DNA from: an uncultured Alistipes sp.
Lineage (GTDB): Bacteria > Bacteroidota > Bacteroidia > Bacteroidales > Rikenellaceae
DNA length: 64,000 nt
Assembly (NCBI GenBank): GCA_944321965.1
Contig: CALUNH010000002.1
Coordinates: 1-64,000 of the forward strand
Direction: 5' to 3'
The notes below the pieces were generated by a model. It was not told where the DNA came from. It was given only the letters and a program-made list of their open reading frames with translations, and did no database searches. Shown piece after piece: positions 13,372 through 36,284 of this stretch (the first letter of the stretch is position 1; each line of letters starts with the position of its first letter). Position numbers and translations under genes: made by a program.

Positions 13372-13446
13372 GGAGCGGAAAACGGGACTCGGACCCGCGA
13401 CCTCAACCTTGGCAAGGTTGCGCTCTACCAACTGAGCTATTTCCGC
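13371..13446 (-). tRNA. tRNA-Gly(GCC) with encoded CCA
   Basis: The minus strand folds as a full cloverleaf. The acceptor stem is GCGGAAA/TTTCCGC. The D-arm is GCTC...GAGC, and the anticodon stem is CAACC/GGTTG with loop TTGCCAA (anticodon GCC). The T-arm is GCGGG-TCCGAGT-CCCGT. Discriminator T and CCA are encoded. The body is 73 nt, 76 with CCA. Confidence 0.95.
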
Positions 13447-26868: not shown

Positions 26869-26899
26869 TTGTTTTATCTAAATATAAGTATTACCTTTG
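26869..26899 (+). promoter_or_regulatory. Promoter of the glycogen cluster
   Basis: TTG (26869-26871), 20 bp, TACCTTTG (26892-26899), in an AT-rich stretch. The start point should be near 26906. A TTG that would extend the first gene to 26897 overlaps the -7 box and cannot be its start. Confidence 0.7.
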
Positions 26900-26950
26900 C
26901 GGCCGGATTCAATTCCGTTCGTCACGAATTACAAACAAGCGATTAAGTAT

Positions 26951-29900
26951 ATGAGCAACGCTAAACACACTCCCGATTTCCTGTTCGAAGTAAGCTGGGA
27001 GGTATGCAACAAGGTGGGCGGAATCCACACCGTCATCTCCACCAAGGCACAAACCGTAACCCGAAAATTCGCAGACCGATACCTCCTGATCGGACCGGAC
27101 CTCTCCCACGAAGGCGTCAACCCCGAATTCGAAGAGGACCCCAATCTGCTGAAAGCCTGGAGACAGGGCCTCTACAATGAAGGTATCCGCGTGCGCGCCG
27201 GACACTGGAAAATAAAGGGCGAACCCAAAGTCCTCCTCGTCGACTTCTCCTCGCTCATCCCCCGCAAGGACGAAATCCTCAAAAGCCTCTGGGAATCCTA
27301 TCACGTGGACTCCATCTCCGGACAGTGGGACTATGTAGAACCCGTACTCTTCGGCTGGGCCGCCGGCGTCGTGATCGCTTCCTACGCCGACACCTTCGGA
27401 ACCCCCACCGAAAAGGCCGTGGCTCACTTCCACGAGTGGCAGACCGCAGCCGGAGGCCTCTACCTGCGGAACCGCTCCCCCTATGTGGCCACCGTATTCA
27501 CCACCCATGCAACCGTCATGGGCCGCTGCATCGCCGGAAACCGCCTCCCGCTCTACAACGACCTCACGAAATTCAACGCCGACGAACTCGCCCGGCGCTT
27601 CAACGTCGTGGCCAAACACTCCATCGAAAAGATGGCCGCGGCATACCACGACGCATTCCTCACCGTCAGCGACATCACCGCAAACGAGTGCAAATACCTC
27701 CTCGGACGCGAACCCGATGCCGTAACACCCAACGGTTTCGAAAACGACTTCGTCTGGTCCGGCGACGAATACTACGCCAAACGGGACGAAGCACGCAAAG
27801 CCATGATCTCCGTCGCCGAAGCCTGCCTCGGAGAGAAATTCAACGGAGATCCCCTGATCGTCGGAACCAGCGGACGCTACGAATTCCGAAACAAGGGTAT
27901 CGATGTCTTCATCGAGTCGCTCAAACTCCTCGCCCAGTCGGACAAGTTCCAGCGTGAAATCCTCGCATACATCACCGTCCCGGCCGGAAACCGAGGACCC
28001 CGCGTCGACCTCCAGGCACACCTGGCAAACCCCGAGAACCCCATCGACGAAAAACAGTACAAATACTCGACCCACTATCTGGAAAACCAGACCTGGGACC
28101 CCATCGTGAACGCACTCAGGGAGAGCCCCCTCACTCAGCCCGGTTCGAAGGTAAAGGTCATCTTCGTCCCCACGTACCTCAACCGCGCAGACGGAATCTT
28201 CAACAAGGATTACTACGAGCTCCTCGTCGGAATGGACCTCACGGTATTCCCCTCCTACTACGAACCCTGGGGATACACCCCCCTGGAGTCCGTAGCATTC
28301 TCCGTCCCGACCGTCACCACAACCCTCGCCGGATTCGGCCTCTGGGTCGACAAGCAGCGTGAACACGCCGGCGTCGAGGTCATCCGCCGCGACGACTACA
28401 ACGACTCCGAAGTCGAGAATAAAATCGCAGAATTCCTCCTGCGGTTCAGCCTTCTCGACGAAAAATACGTCAACGAAATCCGCACATCGGCCTTCGAAAT
28501 CTCGATGACCGCCCTCTGGGAGCACCTCTTCGCAGCCTACGAACAGGCATACTCCGAAGCCGTCAAAAGCTCGATCGTCCGCACCAACCGCACCATGCTC
28601 GACGACGGAGGCGCAAAAACCGAACAGATCAACTTCGTCCGCCAGCAGCTCTTCGTCGAAAAACCGAACTGGAGCCGAATGATGGTCGACAAGACCCTCC
28701 CCAAACGCCTCCACGCCCTGGAGGAGCTCTCCAGGAACCTCTGGTGGTGCTGGAACCCCGGAGCCCGCGACCTCTTCGAGGGCATCGACCCCGCTCTCTG
28801 GGCCGAATGCGAAAGCAACCCCATCGCATTCCTCGACAAACTCAGCGTCGAGCGGATGCGCGAACTCGAAAAGGATACCAACTTCCTCGCCATGCTGGAT
28901 GCCGTACACACCCAGTTCCGCGACTACATGAACGAGAAGCCCGACCCCAAGGCCACCACGATCTCCTACTTCTCGATGGAGTACGGACTGCACTCCTCGC
29001 TGAAAATCTACTCCGGAGGCCTCGGAATCCTCGCCGGTGACTACCTCAAGGAGGCTTCGGACCGCAACGTCCCGATGGCTGCCGTAGGCCTGCTCTACCG
29101 CTACGGATACTTCACACAGCGGCTCTCCGCACAGGGAGCCCAGGAGGCTACCTACGAAGCCCAGAACTTCTACAAACTCCCCATCTCGCCCGTGCGCGAC
29201 GAGGCCGGAAACTGGATGACCGTATCCATCGCATTCCCCGGACGCACGCTCCTGGCCCGCATCTGGAAATGCCAGGTCGGACGTACCGACCTCTACCTGC
29301 TCGACGCCGACATCGAGGACAACCTCGAAGAGGACCGTCAGGTAACCCACTACCTCTACGGCGGCGACTGGGAGAACCGACTCAAGCAGGAGATCCTGCT
29401 CGGTATCGGCGGTATCCGCGCCCTCAGAAAACTCGGAATCAAGCACGACGTGTACCACTGCAACGAGGGTCATGCCGCATTCATCGGCATCGAGCGAATC
29501 CGCGACCTGGTCAACCACCGCAAGCTCTCCTTCTCGGAGGCCCTGGAGGTCGTCCGCTCGTCGTCGCTCTTCACCACCCACACCCCCGTGCCGGCCGGGC
29601 ACGACGCATTCCCCGAGTCGATGATCCGCCAGTACATGTCCCACTACCCCGACGTGCTCGGAATCACCTGGGAACAGTACATCAACCTCGGAAAGACGAA
29701 TCCCAACGACCCGAACGAGAAATTCTCGATGTCGGTGCTCGCCTGCAACCTCTCCCAGGAGGTAAACGGCGTGTCGTGGCTCCATGGCGAGGTCTCGAAG
29801 GACATTCTCGGAAACATGTGGCCCGGATACTTCAAGAACGAACTCCACATCGGGTACGTCACCAACGGCGTGCACTTCCCGACCTGGATCGCAACCTCCC

Positions 29901-31201
29901 TGCGCCGGCTCTACGCCCGCTACTTCGCCGACGGGTTCGAAGGACATACCTATGATATCCCCGCCTGGCAGAAGGTCCACAATATCCCCGATGCCGAACT
30001 CTGGGAGGTGCGCATGAAACTCAAGAACCGGCTCATCAAGCATATCCGCAAACGCTACAGCGACCCCAAACAGGTGCGCCTCGACTCCCCGAAGCAGATG
30101 CTCCAGGTCATCGAGGGTCTGCGCCCCGACGTCCTGACCATCGGTTTCGCACGGCGGTTCGCAACCTACAAGCGCGCATACCTCCTCTTCACGAACCTCG
30201 ACCGCCTCGCCGCCATCGTCAACAACAAGGAGCGCCCCGTACAGTTCATCTTTGCGGGTAAGGCTCACCCCAACGACAAGCCCGGCCAGGACCTCATCAA
30301 ACGCATCGTCGAAGTCGCCGCCATGCCCCAGTTCGTGGGAAAGATCCTCTTCCTCCAGAATTACGACATGGAACTCGCCCGCCGCATGGTACAGGGTGTC
30401 GACGTCTGGCTCAATACCCCCACCCGACCCCTGGAGGCTTCGGGCACCTCGGGCGAAAAGTGCGTCATGAACGGCGTCATGCAGTTCTCCGTCCTCGACG
30501 GATGGTGGGTCGAAGGATACAAGGAGGGTGCCGGTTGGGCGCTCCCCATGGAACGGACCTTCACGGACCAGCACTTCCAGGACGAACTCGACGCCGAGAT
30601 GATCTACAATACCATCGAGGAGCAGATCGCCCCGAAATATTACGCCCGCGATACGGACTACATCCCCCACGAGTGGATCGCTTCGATCAAGAAGTGCATC
30701 GCCGACATCGCATCCAACTTTACCACGAACCGGATGCTGATCGACTACGAGGAGCGCTTCTACAACAAACTCGCGGCCCGGAAACGTCTGATGGCTGACG
30801 ACGCATACCGGATGGCCCGCGAAATCGCGGCCTGGAAACGAAAGGTCTCCGCAGCCTGGGATCAGGTCCGCGCCGTGGACGTCCAGCGCGTCAAGATCGA
30901 CAAGGAGGCCGTATACGTCGGCGAAAAGTATCGATTCTCCGTGACCGTGGACATCGCAAACCTCCGACCCGAGGATATCGGCGTCGAAATGGTGCTCGCC
31001 CGGCAGATCGTCGGTGGTCAGTCCGTCAACGTAACCCGGACCATTCAGCTCGAACGGGCCAAGATCGAAGGAAGTCTGGTTACATACGCCCTCGACTATA
31101 CCCCCGATGAGGCCGGAACGTTCGATGTCGCACTGAGAATCTATCCCTCCAACCCGAACCTCCCCCACCGGATGGATTTCGCTCTCGTAAAATGGGCTTA
31201 A
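26951..31201 (+). CDS. Fusion of GT3-type glycogen synthase and GT35 alpha-glucan phosphorylase
   Basis: A 1416-residue cytosolic protein. Residues about 8-600 resemble eukaryote-type (GT3) glycogen synthase: LFEVSWEVCNKVGGIHTVIS, VAHFHEWQTAAGGLYL, ATVFTTHATVMGR, SDITANECKYLLGREPDAVT and, later, VFPSYYEPWGYTPLE, as in GT3 enzymes that transfer glucose from UDP-glucose. Residues about 610-700 look like the DUF3417 lead domain (LEELSRNLWWCWNPGARDLF). Residues about 700-1290 are a GT35 phosphorylase (TISYFSMEYGLHSSLKIYSG, ARRFATYKRAYL) with the PLP-lysine motif EASGTSGEK (Lys1170). The last 100 residues form a beta domain. One chain thus seems able both to build and to phosphorolyse alpha-1,4-glucan. 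Start: ATG at 26951, after the promoter. Three further glucan genes follow. Confidence 0.85.
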   Translation: MSNAKHTPDFLFEVSWEVCNKVGGIHTVISTKAQTVTRKFADRYLLIGPDLSHEGVNPEFEEDPNLLKAWRQGLYNEGIRVRAGHWKIKGEPKVLLVDFSSLIPRKDEILKSLWESYHVDSISGQWDYVEPVLFGWAAGVVIASYADTFGTPTEKAVAHFHEWQTAAGGLYLRNRSPYVATVFTTHATVMGRCIAGNRLPLYNDLTKFNADELARRFNVVAKHSIEKMAAAYHDAFLTVSDITANECKYLLGREPDAVTPNGFENDFVWSGDEYYAKRDEARKAMISVAEACLGEKFNGDPLIVGTSGRYEFRNKGIDVFIESLKLLAQSDKFQREILAYITVPAGNRGPRVDLQAHLANPENPIDEKQYKYSTHYLENQTWDPIVNALRESPLTQPGSKVKVIFVPTYLNRADGIFNKDYYELLVGMDLTVFPSYYEPWGYTPLESVAFSVPTVTTTLAGFGLWVDKQREHAGVEVIRRDDYNDSEVENKIAEFLLRFSLLDEKYVNEIRTSAFEISMTALWEHLFAAYEQAYSEAVKSSIVRTNRTMLDDGGAKTEQINFVRQQLFVEKPNWSRMMVDKTLPKRLHALEELSRNLWWCWNPGARDLFEGIDPALWAECESNPIAFLDKLSVERMRELEKDTNFLAMLDAVHTQFRDYMNEKPDPKATTISYFSMEYGLHSSLKIYSGGLGILAGDYLKEASDRNVPMAAVGLLYRYGYFTQRLSAQGAQEATYEAQNFYKLPISPVRDEAGNWMTVSIAFPGRTLLARIWKCQVGRTDLYLLDADIEDNLEEDRQVTHYLYGGDWENRLKQEILLGIGGIRALRKLGIKHDVYHCNEGHAAFIGIERIRDLVNHRKLSFSEALEVVRSSSLFTTHTPVPAGHDAFPESMIRQYMSHYPDVLGITWEQYINLGKTNPNDPNEKFSMSVLACNLSQEVNGVSWLHGEVSKDILGNMWPGYFKNELHIGYVTNGVHFPTWIATSLRRLYARYFADGFEGHTYDIPAWQKVHNIPDAELWEVRMKLKNRLIKHIRKRYSDPKQVRLDSPKQMLQVIEGLRPDVLTIGFARRFATYKRAYLLFTNLDRLAAIVNNKERPVQFIFAGKAHPNDKPGQDLIKRIVEVAAMPQFVGKILFLQNYDMELARRMVQGVDVWLNTPTRPLEASGTSGEKCVMNGVMQFSVLDGWWVEGYKEGAGWALPMERTFTDQHFQDELDAEMIYNTIEEQIAPKYYARDTDYIPHEWIASIKKCIADIASNFTTNRMLIDYEERFYNKLAARKRLMADDAYRMAREIAAWKRKVSAAWDQVRAVDVQRVKIDKEAVYVGEKYRFSVTVDIANLRPEDIGVEMVLARQIVGGQSVNVTRTIQLERAKIEGSLVTYALDYTPDEAGTFDVALRIYPSNPNLPHRMDFALVKWA

Positions 31202-31252
31202 ACACATTTTGTGACAAAACGGTAGAAAATTCATCGAATTTCAGCAACCGCG

Positions 31253-31309: not shown

Positions 31310-33394
31310 ATGTCAGCATTAACCTTCGACAAAAGCGAACTCGGGAACCTGGAGTACTCCCTCCAGCGCGAAATGCTCGCTACCGACCGAATCGGCGGAT
31401 ACATGAGCACGACTATCGTCTGCTGCAATACGCGCCGATATCACGGACTGATCGTATCCCCGATCGATACCTCAGACCGGACCTATGTCCTCCTGTCGGC
31501 GCTCGACGAATCCATCATCCAGCACGACCAGACATTCAACCTGGCGCTCCACCGCTTCAAGGGAACTTACGAACCCCGGGGACACAAGTACATCACCGAC
31601 TTCGAGTACACCCCCACTCCCACCATTACCTACCGCGTGGGTGGCGTAATCCTCAAAAAGGAGATGCTCTGGATCCACAAGCGGACCCAGCTCATGATCC
31701 GTTACACGCTTGTCGATGCTCACTCCGAAACCCGGCTCAGACTCCGGCCGTTCCTCGCATTCCGCGACAAACATGCCCTGACCCATGCCAACATGGAGGC
31801 CGACGGCCACTCATATCCCGCCGTAAACGGTGTGAAATGCAGACTCTACAGCTCATTCCCCTGGCTCTATCTCCAGACAAACAAGCCCGATACGGAATTC
31901 GTGCCCGCTCCCGACTGGTACTACAACTTCGAGTACCTCCAGGACATCGCTCGCGGATATGACGGATACGAGGATCTGATGACTACCGGATATTTCGAAA
32001 CCGAACTCAAAAAGGGCGAAAGCATCATCTTCTCCGCGTCGCTCGACGAAATGGGTTCCGCAAAGACCATCGAGGAGCTCTTCCAGGGTTCCATCGCCCG
32101 ACGCACGCACAAGATCGACTTCATCAGCTGTCTCGAACACTCCGCACGCCAGTTCCTGATCCGACGCCCCGGAAACCGTACCGAGGTGATCTCCGGATAC
32201 CCCTGGCACGGCGTCTCCGGACGACAGACCTTTGTCGCACTGCCCGGAATCACACTCCGCCAGAACCACAAGGAGGACTGCATCGATGCCCTCGATACCC
32301 AGGTCCGAAACATGTGCAACGGCATGTTCTGCGGAGACTTCTCCGCCGCCGTGGCCGCGGATACGCCCCTCTGGTTCTTCTGGACCCTCCAGCAGCTCGA
32401 AGCGCAGATCGGAGCACAGGCCGTCTGGGAACGATACGGCGACGCCATGAAGCAGATCCTCGAATCCTACAGGCTGGGAGTCGCAGGACGGGTCATCCTC
32501 AATGACAACGGACTGATCTGGGCTTCCGCGGAACGGACACCCCTGACGTGGATGAACTCCGTGATCGCAGGATCCCCCGTAACCCCGAGAAACGGATACC
32601 AGGTAGAGGTCAATGCACTCTGGTACAACGCCGTATGCTACGCCTTGAAACTCGCGGCTGAAAACGGGGACAAGAAGTTCGTCAAGGCCTGGGAGAAACT
32701 CCCCGAAAAGACAAAGGCCTCCTTCAACGAACTATTCCACCTCGCCGAAGGTTATCTGGCCGACTACGTGGGATTCGAAGGTCCCGCCAAGGAGATCCGA
32801 CCCAACATGATCATCGCCTGCGGGCTCCCCTACAAGATGCTCGACGAACAGGCGCAGCTCGAAGTCATCCAGACCGTTCGCCAGCACCTCCTCACCCCCA
32901 AGGGCCTGCGGACCCTCTCGCCCCGCAACCCCCTCTACAAGGGTTCGCAGGAGGGTACGCCCGAAGAGCGCGATTTCGCAGGAAAGAACGGCTCCGTTTG
33001 GCCCTGGCTCCTGGAGTTCTACGTCCAGGCCTGCTTCGACATCAACGGAGATGCCTTCCTGCCCCAGGCCGAGGAGATTCTCGAAGGATTCGAGGAGGAC
33101 ATCCAGTCCTACGGAATCGGATCCATCGGTGAACTCTTCGATGCGGATCCCCCCTATGCACCCCGCGGAGCTATCTCGCAGGCATGGAGCGTCGCTTCCG
33201 TACTGGACATCCACGCCATGATCCAGGCGCGCAAGGCGGACAAGGCCGAAACCCCGAAGAAGAAATCCACCCGGAAACCGGCCGCCAAAACTGCAGCAAA
33301 GGCGGAAGCCAAAAGCGAAAAGAAGGCCGAAACAAAAGCCGTAAAGAAAACCGCGACCAAAAAATCCACGGCGAAAAAGGCCGCAACAAAATAG
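31310..33394 (+). CDS. Amylo-alpha-1,6-glucosidase (GH133-type debranching enzyme) with Lys/Ala-rich tail
   Basis: A 694-residue protein without a signal peptide. Residues 1-230 match the N-terminal domain of bacterial glycogen debranching enzymes (LATDRIGGYMSTTIVCCNTRRYHGLIV). Residues 290-640 form the alpha/alpha-barrel catalytic domain (YPWHGVSGRQTFVALPG, LIWASAERTPLTWMNS, GYQVEVNALWYNAVCYALKL, and LRTLSPRNPLYKG). It removes alpha-1,6 branches left by phosphorylase. The last 53 residues are almost only K, A, T, E and S (PKKKSTRKPAAKTAAKAEA and onward), resembling histone-H1-like tails; this is not part of the enzyme family and should be disordered and very basic. The upstream fusion gene ends 108 bp before. 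Confidence 0.9.
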   Translation: MSALTFDKSELGNLEYSLQREMLATDRIGGYMSTTIVCCNTRRYHGLIVSPIDTSDRTYVLLSALDESIIQHDQTFNLALHRFKGTYEPRGHKYITDFEYTPTPTITYRVGGVILKKEMLWIHKRTQLMIRYTLVDAHSETRLRLRPFLAFRDKHALTHANMEADGHSYPAVNGVKCRLYSSFPWLYLQTNKPDTEFVPAPDWYYNFEYLQDIARGYDGYEDLMTTGYFETELKKGESIIFSASLDEMGSAKTIEELFQGSIARRTHKIDFISCLEHSARQFLIRRPGNRTEVISGYPWHGVSGRQTFVALPGITLRQNHKEDCIDALDTQVRNMCNGMFCGDFSAAVAADTPLWFFWTLQQLEAQIGAQAVWERYGDAMKQILESYRLGVAGRVILNDNGLIWASAERTPLTWMNSVIAGSPVTPRNGYQVEVNALWYNAVCYALKLAAENGDKKFVKAWEKLPEKTKASFNELFHLAEGYLADYVGFEGPAKEIRPNMIIACGLPYKMLDEQAQLEVIQTVRQHLLTPKGLRTLSPRNPLYKGSQEGTPEERDFAGKNGSVWPWLLEFYVQACFDINGDAFLPQAEEILEGFEEDIQSYGIGSIGELFDADPPYAPRGAISQAWSVASVLDIHAMIQARKADKAETPKKKSTRKPAAKTAAKAEAKSEKKAETKAVKKTATKKSTAKKAATK

Positions 33395-35072: not shown

Positions 35073-36284
35073 ATGAAAACCGTTTGCCTCTACTTTCAGG
35101 TACATCAGCCCTGGCGTCTGAAAAAGTACCGCTTTTTCAACATGGGCAAGGACCATAACTACCTGGACGACCTCCAGAACCGCGCTATCATGCAAAAGGT
35201 CGCCCGCCAGTGCTACCTCCCCATGAACGCCCTGCTGCTGAAACTCATCAAGGAAAACAAGGGTAAGTTCCGCTGCTCGTTCTCGATCACGGGTATCGCC
35301 ATCGAGCAGATGAAGGCTTTCGCTCCCGAAGTCCTCGACTCCTTCAAGGAGCTCGCCGCAACGGGATGCGTGGAATTCCTCGCCGAAACCTACTCGCACT
35401 CCCTCGCGGCACTCGCCTCCAAGGAGGATTTCGAAGAGCAGGTGAAACTCCACACGAACCTCATCAAGAAGGAGTTCGGCGTGAAACCCACCGCTTTCCG
35501 GAACACCGAGCTCATCTACTCCGACGAAATCGGTGCCATGGTGGCCGGAATGGGATTCCGTACGATGCTCGCCGAAGGCGCCAAGCACGTGTTGGGTTGG
35601 AAATCCCCCAACTACGTCTACGCAAACGCCATCGATCAGAAACTCCGCCTCCTGCTGCGCAACTACAAGCTCTCGGACGATATCGCATTCCGATTCTCCA
35701 ACCAAAGCTGGGACCAGTGGCCTCTGACCGCCGACAAGTACGTACAGTGGCTCGCTTCGGACGAAACCCCCGGAGAGGTCATCAACCTCTTCATGGATTA
35801 CGAAACGTTCGGTGAGCACCAGGCTGCCGATACCGGAATCTTCGAGTTCATGCGCGCCCTGCCCAAAGCCATCCTCGCCAAGAAGAACGGGCTGGAGTTC
35901 GCAACCGTAACCGAAGCCGCCAAAAAGTATCAGCCCGTTGCCGTGCTCCACTGTCCGCACGTGATGTCCTGGGCCGACGAGGAGCGTGACATTACCGCCT
36001 GGCTCGGAAACGAACTCCAGAACGAGGCATTCGCAAAACTGTACGCGCAGAAAGAGAAGATCAGGACCCTGAAAAACCCCGACTTCGACTACGTGTGGAG
36101 CTTCTTGCAGACCTCCGACCACTTCTATTACATGGCAACCAAGTGGCTGTCCGACGGGGACGTACACTCCTACTTCAACCCCTACGACTCGGCTTATGAC
36201 GCCTTTATCAACTACATGAACGTCCTCTCGGACTTCATCATCGAGTTGGACAAGGCCGTAGCTGCCAAAAACGCCCGCAAATAG
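35073..36284 (+). CDS. GH57 family glycoside hydrolase (alpha-amylase or branching-type)
   Basis: A 403-residue cytosolic protein with GH57 motifs: opening CLYFQVHQPWRLKKY (motif 1, HQP), FSITGIAIEQM, the nucleophile region FRNTELIYSDEIG (Glu about 152), and the acid/base region FMDYETFGEHQ (Asp about 241). GH57 covers alpha-amylases, 4-alpha-glucanotransferases and branching enzymes. At 403 residues and without the extra C-terminal helical domain of GH57 branching enzymes (about 520 or more), an intracellular amylase or glucanotransferase is more likely. It starts 12 bp after the glycosyltransferase and ends the cluster at a terminator. Confidence 0.88.
   Translation: MKTVCLYFQVHQPWRLKKYRFFNMGKDHNYLDDLQNRAIMQKVARQCYLPMNALLLKLIKENKGKFRCSFSITGIAIEQMKAFAPEVLDSFKELAATGCVEFLAETYSHSLAALASKEDFEEQVKLHTNLIKKEFGVKPTAFRNTELIYSDEIGAMVAGMGFRTMLAEGAKHVLGWKSPNYVYANAIDQKLRLLLRNYKLSDDIAFRFSNQSWDQWPLTADKYVQWLASDETPGEVINLFMDYETFGEHQAADTGIFEFMRALPKAILAKKNGLEFATVTEAAKKYQPVAVLHCPHVMSWADEERDITAWLGNELQNEAFAKLYAQKEKIRTLKNPDFDYVWSFLQTSDHFYYMATKWLSDGDVHSYFNPYDSAYDAFINYMNVLSDFIIELDKAVAAKNARK

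What the first reader, a model, noticed from the sequence alone, without database searches (positions are those of the whole stretch)
26951..31201. One protein joins a eukaryote-like GT3 glycogen synthase to a GT35 glycogen phosphorylase
Seen: N-terminal half carries GT3-like segments (FEVSWEVCNKVGGI, HFHEW, FTTHATVMGR); C-terminal half carries a full phosphorylase with its PLP lysine motif EASGTSGEK, in one 1416-residue frame. Known: the two activities oppose each other, and in yeast and animals they are separate proteins under reciprocal control. Inference: fusion could give a switchable or substrate-channelled machine, or one half may be regulatory.
Basis: partly seen in the sequence, partly recalled or inferred. 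Interest (0 to 1): 0.7.

Follow-up and report, generated by a model that had tools for sequence, protein, structure and literature searches.

The report
Fused glycogen builder and breaker enzyme
In an Alistipes-like bacterium and in most of the related genomes searched, one protein carries a glycogen-synthase domain followed by a glycogen-phosphorylase domain, both with their catalytic residues kept, so a single molecule would likely do two opposite jobs that yeast and animals keep in separate proteins.

Summary
26951-31201 is one open frame of 1416 residues: a GT3 glycogen-synthase domain (Pfam 311 bits), a poorly conserved linker and a complete GT35-type alpha-glucan phosphorylase (TIGR02094, 843 bits). 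It is no frameshift: 84 of 129 genomes of the order have a stop-free match across both halves. Trees of GT3, phosphorylase and both together put 37 of 38 split genomes in one clade inside the fused forms, so the fusion looks ancestral here and was split once, on the line to Bacteroides, Prevotella, Parabacteroides and most Dysgonomonas sampled. Both halves keep their catalytic residues and are under purifying selection (dN/dS 0.19 and 0.15). 'Eukaryote-like' is only partly right: the tetramerization insert and most of the glucose-6-phosphate site are missing. Best reading: a bifunctional glycogen-turnover enzyme, its direction likely set by substrate supply. No activity was tested. Ten searches of an open-access library listed no paper on the fusion; databases already hold it, named only as phosphorylase. 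New variant of a known kind.

The parts
26951..31201 (+). Single coding frame, 1416 aa, GT3 glycogen synthase fused to GT35 alpha-glucan phosphorylase
   Evidence: the 120 best relatives listed of 7997 scored are 1367-1430 aa and cover 100% of it, the nearest (P0002) 94% identical
26978..28585 (+). GT3 domain, residues 10-545
   Evidence: PF05693; GYS1 alignments; AlphaFold2 model of 1-575, pLDDT 91.9, pTM 0.90; 39 best PDB hits are GT3 glycogen synthases
27875..27895 (+). Donor diphosphate-binding residues R309 and K315 (GYS1 R331, K337)
   Evidence: mapping; R309 in 140 of 141 and K315 in 141 of 141 proteins; role from PMC9287172 passages
28262..28288 (+). Donor/catalytic residues E438, Y442, E446 (GYS1 E510, Y514, E518)
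   Evidence: E438 and E446 in 141 of 141, Y442 in 140 of 141
28586..28699 (+). Linker, residues 546-583: 16% identity to 72 relatives, in which it is 32-37 residues long (38 here); low model confidence at 548-569 and 575-588
28697..29002 (+). DUF3417 (N-terminal part of the phosphorylase), residues 583-684
   Evidence: PF11897, 119 bits
28961..30769 (+). Alpha-glucan phosphorylase core (TIGR02094), residues 671-1273
   Evidence: closest solved structure 9l6i, Segatella copri glycogen phosphorylase
30458..30460 (+). Predicted PLP lysine K1170 in EASGTSGEK
   Evidence: K in 146 of 146 proteins; equivalence to muscle K680 by motif, recalled
30770..31198 (+). C-terminal part of the phosphorylase, residues 1274-1416, shared with 9l6i
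   Evidence: alignment up to residue 850 of 9l6i
26869..26899 (+). Promoter-like ATTG-N20-TACCTTTG upstream of the ATG; resembles the Bacteroidetes -33/-7 consensus
   Evidence: read by eye; consensus recalled; no statistical test
31310..33394 (+). GH133-type glycogen debranching enzyme (GDE_N, GDE_C)
   Evidence: PF12439 261 bits, PF06202 251 bits
33741..35060 (+). GT4-like glycosyltransferase, role in glycogen unknown
   Evidence: PF00534 121 bits; glgA_Coryne profile 135 bits, below its cut-off of 302
35073..36284 (+). GH57 enzyme (amylase or transferase)
   Evidence: PF03065 265 bits

Best explanation
One gene encodes a 1416-residue protein in which a complete GT3 glycogen-synthase domain is followed by a complete GT35 alpha-glucan phosphorylase, and it likely works as a bifunctional glycogen-turnover enzyme that is predicted to add glucose from UDP-glucose and to remove it with phosphate at the same non-reducing chain ends. 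Shown by sequence: the single frame, the two families, the conserved residues of both active sites and purifying selection on both halves. Inferred from trees: an ancestral fused state and one later fission. Inferred from families: UDP-glucose as donor, both activities in one molecule, and co-localisation of the two on the glycogen particle at a fixed 1:1 ratio. Because the eukaryotic tetramer insert and most of the glucose-6-phosphate site are missing, I expect no eukaryotic allostery or phosphorylation switch. Net direction would be set by UDP-glucose and glucose-1-phosphate against inorganic phosphate; the phosphorylase half might also lengthen short maltodextrins into primers (glycogenin, GT8, was not searched for).
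For: GT3 profile, donor residues and predicted fold; phosphorylase profile, PLP-site residues and a 49%-identical solved Segatella copri glycogen phosphorylase. Within the genus dN/dS is 0.185 for the GT3 half and 0.148 for the phosphorylase half, medians of 131 usable of 210 pairs among 21 genes. 84 of 129 genomes of the order carry both halves in one stop-free match. After the fission the two genes stayed next to each other in 20 of 22 genomes. The fusion sits with glycogen genes: GH133, GT4 and GH57 on the same strand directly upstream in 43, and downstream in 1 (the window), of 62 fused loci with at least 5 kb upstream and 4 kb downstream held. In the window's genome this is the only GT3 and the only TIGR02094 protein found; GT5 is only a 281-residue fragment, and none of the three NTP_transferase proteins reached the glgC cut-off, which leaves UDP-glucose and GT3 as the likely route.
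Against: No activity, donor specificity or oligomeric state was measured, and no UDP-glucose pyrophosphorylase was identified (uninformative). Of the three uridine-sandwich residues of GYS1, Y493 is kept (Y421) and F481 is aromatic (Y409), but I367 is not conserved (T342 here). A GT4 enzyme in the same cluster could be the real synthase. Several lineages lost the GT3 half and kept the phosphorylase (5 phosphorylase-only rows at 4 places on the tree; four of those five genomes have no GT3 match at all), and one clade separated the halves, so tethering is not essential. In one characterised glycogen-enzyme fusion (Waddlia GlgA-GlgB) a domain appears inactive (PMC7935935). Five of 142 GT3 sequences depart from an eight-residue donor signature, two of them at R192. 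The linker is low-confidence and no inter-domain arrangement was predicted (pTM 0.62). The window's genome is 85% complete, so the absences are provisional, and two of 14 genomes searched have a nearly full-length GT5 below the cut-off beside the fragment (G639, fused; G638).
Confidence: 0.6

Rival explanations
1. The two halves act independently and the fusion only keeps the two proteins at equal dose and in one place, with no coupling or control between them. This is the uncoupled sub-case of the best reading, so the two confidences overlap.
For: The linker is poorly conserved (16% identity) and low in model confidence. One large clade runs the pair as separate, mostly adjacent genes with the same residues conserved. 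The neighbouring glycogen genes also travel together without being fused.
Against: The fused state has persisted over lineages that share about 50% identity, and linker length stays at 32-37 residues in 72 relatives (many other poorly conserved stretches vary even less, so this is weak).
Confidence: 0.5
2. The GT3 half is mainly a glycogen-binding or regulatory module for the phosphorylase, and the GT4 protein of the cluster is the true glycogen synthase.
For: GT4 and GH57 stay beside the phosphorylase in 4 of 5 phosphorylase-only loci. A review marks the role of GT4 in archaeal glycogen metabolism as needing clarification (PMC11046441, passages). In L117 the second half of the GT3 domain is missing while the phosphorylase is whole, and L151/L155 have E at R192.
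Against: E438, E446 and K315 are present in 141 of 141 GT3 halves (L117 and L292 are not among them) and purifying selection is nearly as strong on GT3 as on the phosphorylase. In G614 the short GT3 is gone and a full-length GT3 is present elsewhere in the genome, which looks like replacement of a synthase.
Confidence: 0.2
3. The joined frame is an assembly or frameshift artefact of two neighbouring genes.
For: In the split clade the genes are mostly adjacent, some in the same frame.
Against: Same fusion in independent genomes and databases, with selection on the codons of both halves and of the linker.
Confidence: 0.01

Closest known systems
Eukaryotic glycogen synthase, GT3 (yeast Gsy2, human GYS1)
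   Same: GT-B fold (predicted), donor-site residues R331, K337, E510, Y514 and E518 equivalents
   Different: Fused to a phosphorylase; no match to GYS1 375-443 (tetramerization insert) and most glucose-6-phosphate contacts lost: H501 is D, R579 is not conserved, R582 is R or K in only 30 of 74 fused rows
Segatella copri glycogen phosphorylase (PDB 9l6i, 20yr) and the alpha-glucan phosphorylase subfamily TIGR02094
   Same: Aligns from residue 568 to 1415 with 977 bits; PLP-site residues conserved
   Different: A separate protein; Prevotella relatives of the window's protein lie in the split clade, so this is inferred to be the separated sibling of the C-half. Placing Segatella with Prevotella is recalled.
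Chlamydial GlgA-GlgB and TreS-Mak fusions (PMC7935935)
   Same: Bacterial glycogen enzymes joined in one polypeptide; TreS-Mak has both activities (passages)
   Different: They join consecutive, not opposing, steps; the branching half of Waddlia GlgA-GlgB appears non-functional
PFK-2/FBPase-2, Rel/SpoT and GlnE type enzymes (recalled)
   Same: Two opposing catalytic domains on one chain
   Different: Those have shown reciprocal control; none has been looked for here

Membership tests
CAZy GT3 glycogen synthase | Profile match above the curated cut-off, better than GT5 and group-1 profiles | tested here: met
   PF05693 311 bits vs PF08323 45 and PF00534 37.5
CAZy GT3 glycogen synthase | Donor-site and catalytic residues | tested here: met
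   H186, R192, R309, K315, E438, Y442, E446 present; the I367 equivalent is not kept
CAZy GT3 glycogen synthase | Fold closest to solved GT3 enzymes | tested here: met
   39 best Foldseek hits are GT3 (TMq 0.78-0.86); first GT5 at rank 40 with TMq 0.55
CAZy GT3 glycogen synthase | UDP-glucose:glucan transfer | not testable with these tools
   needs an assay
Eukaryotic regulated glycogen synthase (subset of GT3) | Tetramerization insert | tested here: not met
   GYS1 375-443 unmatched; 129 residues between the GRYE and YEPWGYTP motifs against 182 in three full-length bacterial GT3 proteins
Eukaryotic regulated glycogen synthase (subset of GT3) | Glucose-6-phosphate arginine cluster and H501 | tested here: not met
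   H501 is D; R579 and R582 equivalents are E504 and V507; R586 (R511) is kept here and is R in 58 of 100 fused and 26 of 38 split rows
GT35 alpha-glucan phosphorylase (TIGR02094) | Profile match above the curated cut-off | tested here: met
   843 bits, cut-off 191.7, full profile 1-600
GT35 alpha-glucan phosphorylase (TIGR02094) | PLP lysine and phosphate-site residues | tested here: met
   K1170, R1069, K1074, H841, N972 in 146 of 146; muscle numbering recalled
GT35 alpha-glucan phosphorylase (TIGR02094) | Phosphorolysis of alpha-1,4-glucan | not testable with these tools
   needs an assay
Bifunctional enzyme with opposing activities | Both catalytic domains intact on one chain | tested here: met
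   (by sequence only)
Bifunctional enzyme with opposing activities | Reciprocal control of the two activities | not testable with these tools
   no trustworthy inter-domain arrangement

The most novel reading that the evidence does not exclude
A single polypeptide holds both opposing active sites of glycogen turnover and works as a self-contained glycogen end-editor: the phosphorylase half primes and trims chains, replacing glycogenin, the GT3 half extends them from UDP-glucose, and the ratio of UDP-glucose to phosphate flips the same molecule between storage and release without kinases or allosteric sugars. This would be the ancestral glycogen machine of an order of dominant gut bacteria, later split in Bacteroides and Prevotella.
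Probability: 0.25. Interest if true: 0.8.

Novelty: new variant of a known kind. Interest (0 to 1): 0.58.

Why it matters
Synthase and phosphorylase are the textbook pair of opposed glycogen enzymes, kept in separate proteins under reciprocal control in yeast and animals. Here an order that includes major gut bacteria carries them, apparently from its ancestor on, as one protein without most of the eukaryotic control sites. It would help explain how Bacteroidetes make glycogen although they lack GlgC (a gap stated in PMC10395257). It also offers a natural experiment: the same two catalytic halves, fused in Alistipes-type and Marinilabiliaceae relatives and separate in Bacteroides and Prevotella, so the effect of physical coupling on glycogen cycling can be measured directly. 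The database name ('alpha-glucan family phosphorylase') hides the synthase half.

Tried and rejected
Rejected: (1) frameshift or assembly artefact. (2) GT4 or GT5 identity of the N-half. (3) Fusion as a recent event in Alistipes: trees show it is older. (4) Split as the ancestral state: the split clade is one side of a branch, so the root decides. I added fused outgroups from another family of the class (f210, 34-37% identity) and phosphorylase paralogues. Rooted on the paralogues, the f210 fusions and then other fused rows branch off first and the split clade is nested; rooted on f210, the split clade is nested in both single-half trees too. A long-branch warning stands for the paralogue rows. 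(5) A specially fixed linker length: it varies little (sd 1.03), but many other low-identity stretches vary less, so I make no claim of fixed geometry.

Led nowhere: PF01704 for a UDP-glucose pyrophosphorylase was uninformative because the control rang nowhere. The structure job on residues 217-1416 gave pTM 0.62 and no trustworthy inter-domain arrangement; the full 1416 residues exceed the 1200 limit. The promoter and terminator scans were at chance level. Papers: searches (listings with starts of abstracts) listed no paper that I recognised as being on the fusion. I saw passages of PMC11046441, PMC10395257, PMC6204037, PMC9188544, PMC9287172 and PMC7935935, no whole text.

Mistakes corrected: one search read six loci on the plus strand; four were redone. 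One search computed dN/dS on the longest frame, which for some genes was the antisense frame and gave values above 1; that part is discarded and one search replaces it (the signature list does not depend on it). In the GYS1 mapping positions 287 and 311 did not carry the residue the paper names and were not used; Lys19 lies outside the aligned part.
Full report
What is there. The plus-strand frame 26951-31201 encodes 1416 residues. Pfam finds PF05693 Glycogen_syn (311 bits, two stretches), DUF3417 at 583-684 and Phosphorylase at 833-1188; NCBIfam finds TIGR02094 at 671-1273 with 843 bits. Against the PDB, residues 568-1415 match Segatella copri glycogen phosphorylase 9l6i (977 bits) and residues 10-349 and 373-503 match human glycogen synthase GYS1 (247 bits). 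AlphaFold2 of residues 1-575 gives pLDDT 91.9 and pTM 0.90. Its 39 best Foldseek hits in the PDB are GT3 enzymes with TMq 0.78-0.86; the first GT5 enzyme is rank 40 with 0.55.

It is real and common. The 120 best hits listed by the protein search (of 7997 scored, itself capped) are 1367-1430 residues long, cover 100% of the query and bear both sets of Pfam domains; the four that carry an organism name are Alistipes 'alpha-glucan family phosphorylase'. In the window's family 142 of 150 genomes have a GT3 match; in the order 259 of 295; in a spread over the phylum only 21 of 395, of which 18 pass the cut-off. A search of 129 genomes of the order with the whole protein found matches in 119, and 84 of the 129 show one stop-free match from residue 70 or earlier to 1401 or later (my count from the listing).

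Fused versus split. I extracted frames from 104 loci: 74 fused, 20 split pairs on one strand with a gap of 1-168 bases, and 8 phosphorylase-only and 2 GT3-only loci, of which two of each are the separated halves of G584 and G629. Not fetched were 12 of the 84 fused genomes and further genomes with contig-cut matches. A tree of 102 rows put all 22 split genomes into one clade (SH-aLRT 100), inside the fused forms. Fused named organisms include Labilibacter, Carboxylicivirga, Marinifilum, Lentimicrobium, Butyricimonas and Rikenellaceae; split ones include Bacteroides, Mediterranea, Prevotella, Parabacteroides, Proteiniphilum and Dysgonomonas. Names do not sort perfectly: Dysgonomonas sp. HGC4 (L200) and three MAGs called Prevotellaceae (L197, L202, L210) are fused; none of them falls in the split clade, which holds split rows only. 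Adding 43 of these 80 (27 fused, all 16 split) gave 37 of 38 split rows in one clade (100), sister to five fused rows, four named Marinilabiliaceae and the unnamed G572 (99). The 38th, L204, is a MAG with an oddly placed break next to a fused relative and is probably a frameshift, not checked further. Fusions also occur outside the order: L291 with the whole gene cluster, and three divergent ones of family f210 (L293, L294, L297). With these added the split clade stays nested in fused lineages in the joint tree and in GT3-only and phosphorylase-only trees (98 and 100; rooted on f210). These are quick LG+G4 trees without bootstraps. The simplest history is an ancestral fusion, one fission, and several losses of the GT3 half.

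Are both halves working enzymes? Using the alignment I mapped GYS1 residues that hold UDP and glucose in the substrate-bound structure (roles from PMC9287172 passages). E510, E518, K337 and H205 equivalents are present in 141 of 141 proteins, R331 and Y514 in 140, R211 in 139; on the other side K1170 (PLP), R1069, K1074, H841 and N972 are in 146 of 146 (muscle phosphorylase numbering recalled; the truncated L117 and L292 were left out, and L291 was not in these two counts). Around the uridine, Y493 is kept and F481 is Y, but I367 is not conserved (L in 36 of 74 fused rows, T here). Five of the 142 GT3 sequences depart from the eight-residue signature GHRRKEYE (L146, L151, L155, L156, L158). 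Within the genus, median dN/dS is 0.185 (GT3), 0.148 (phosphorylase) and 0.190 (linker, 129 pairs), from 131 of 210 pairs among 21 genes, the window and 20 that I chose; pairs were used if dS lay between 0.1 and 1.5 in both halves. So neither half looks like a relic in the window's genus. Exceptions exist elsewhere: L117 lacks the second half of the GT3 domain, and L292 lacks DUF3417 and the phosphorylase C-terminus.

What is missing compared with eukaryotic synthase. The stretch GYS1 375-443, which contains tetramerization-domain residues K429 and R430 (PMC9287172), has no match. The distance between two fixed motifs is 129 residues here against 182 in three full-length bacterial GT3 proteins, L003, L005 and L008. 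Of the glucose-6-phosphate contacts, H501 is D429 (D in 138 of 138 fused and split rows and 2 of 3 f210 rows), R579 is E504 and variable, R582 is V507 (R or K in 30 of 74 fused rows), and R586 is R511, kept as R in 58 of 100 fused and 26 of 38 split rows. By contrast the nine full-length GT3 proteins from other families of the phylum that I checked keep the QRN helix motif. The placement of R579-R591 rests on anchoring W598 on W523 by eye.

Context. Downstream in the window lie a GH133 debranching enzyme, a GT4-like enzyme and a GH57 enzyme on the same strand. In 62 fused loci with at least 5 kb upstream and 4 kb downstream held, the trio lies directly upstream on the same strand in 43, downstream in 1 (the window), is partly present or otherwise placed in 3 and absent from the flanks in 15; two loci with shorter flanks (L121, L137) also have it downstream. 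Among split loci with at least 5 kb upstream it is upstream in 1 of 8. In four of five phosphorylase-only loci GT4 and GH57 still precede the phosphorylase, as if GT3 had been cut out. In G614 a full-length GT3 exists elsewhere in the genome; the other four phosphorylase-only genomes have no GT3 match. The window's genome (85% complete) shows no second GT3 or TIGR02094 protein, a GT5 N-terminal fragment of 281 residues, a GlgB-like GH13 of 686 residues (271 bits, below the 741 cut-off) and no NTP_transferase protein over the glgC cut-off. A like GT5 fragment is in 14 of 14 genomes searched; two of them also have a nearly full-length GT5 below the cut-off.

How it most likely works. Inference: the GT3 half transfers glucose from UDP-glucose, the phosphorylase half releases glucose-1-phosphate, and both sit on the same glycogen particle at a 1:1 ratio. 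Without most eukaryotic control sites, direction would follow substrate supply. Whether the halves influence one another is open: the linker (546-583) is 16% identical with low model confidence, and its length (32-37 in 72 relatives, 38 here) is steady but not exceptionally so. The fission shows that the tether can be dispensed with; 20 of 22 split genomes keep the genes adjacent.

What is known. A 2024 review places Bacteroidetes GT3 in a GT3 tree and mentions a conserved fragment of GT5; the two uses of 'fused' found in the held text concern GlgB-MalQ and Mak-TreS (PMC11046441, passages, first 300,000 characters held). A 2023 review notes that Bacteroidetes lack GlgC and may have more human-like enzymes (PMC10395257, passages). 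[quoted passage not shown] Ten searches of the library listed no paper that I recognised as being on a GT3-GT35 fusion; most subscription papers and all bioRxiv preprints are outside it, and CAZy could not be consulted. Both families are known, so I file it as a new variant of a known kind.

Noticed in passing
own genome G000:C22:11292-11969 (L169); 14 genomes: A GT5 (GlgA) N-terminal piece in a short open frame of 266-306 codons occurs in 14 of 14 genomes searched, fused and split alike, with no GT5 over the family cut-off (two also have a nearly full-length GT5 below it); a conserved half-enzyme of unknown role.
   Followed up: partly
window 26909-31234 (-): An antisense open frame of 1441 codons covers the whole fusion gene; a frame of that kind misled one of my own scripts. 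Probably a composition effect.
   Followed up: no
L117 (G575): A fused protein of 1157 codons lacking the second half of the GT3 domain; G686 of the same genus also shows only one GT3 stretch.
   Followed up: no
L292 (G912): A fused protein of 1173 codons that keeps GT3 but lacks DUF3417 and the phosphorylase C-terminus.
   Followed up: no
L151, L155 (G553, G668; family f66): R192 of the GT3 donor site is E in both, so the synthase half may be inactive there.
   Followed up: no
L113 and G614:C33:212034-213803: Phosphorylase alone behind GH133-GT4-GH57, and a full-length GT3 elsewhere in the genome: apparent replacement of the short GT3.
   Followed up: partly
L194; L186; L238; L249; L200: Fused proteins under the names Candidatus Heimdallarchaeota, Chitinophaga pinensis (MAG), Capnocytophaga canis, Chitinophaga rupis and Dysgonomonas sp. 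HGC4: transfer, misnaming or binning contamination.
   Followed up: no
L293, L294, L297 (family f210, same class): Highly divergent fusions of 1337-1360 codons, 34-37% identical in both halves, with the donor and PLP residues that I checked present.
   Followed up: partly
own genome G000:C6:77153-77812 (L174): A 312-residue nucleotidyltransferase with only 21.5 bits to galU; a candidate for the missing UDP-glucose pyrophosphorylase.
   Followed up: no
window 13374-13446 (-): A tRNA gene, the only Rfam match over the gathering score in the window.
   Followed up: no
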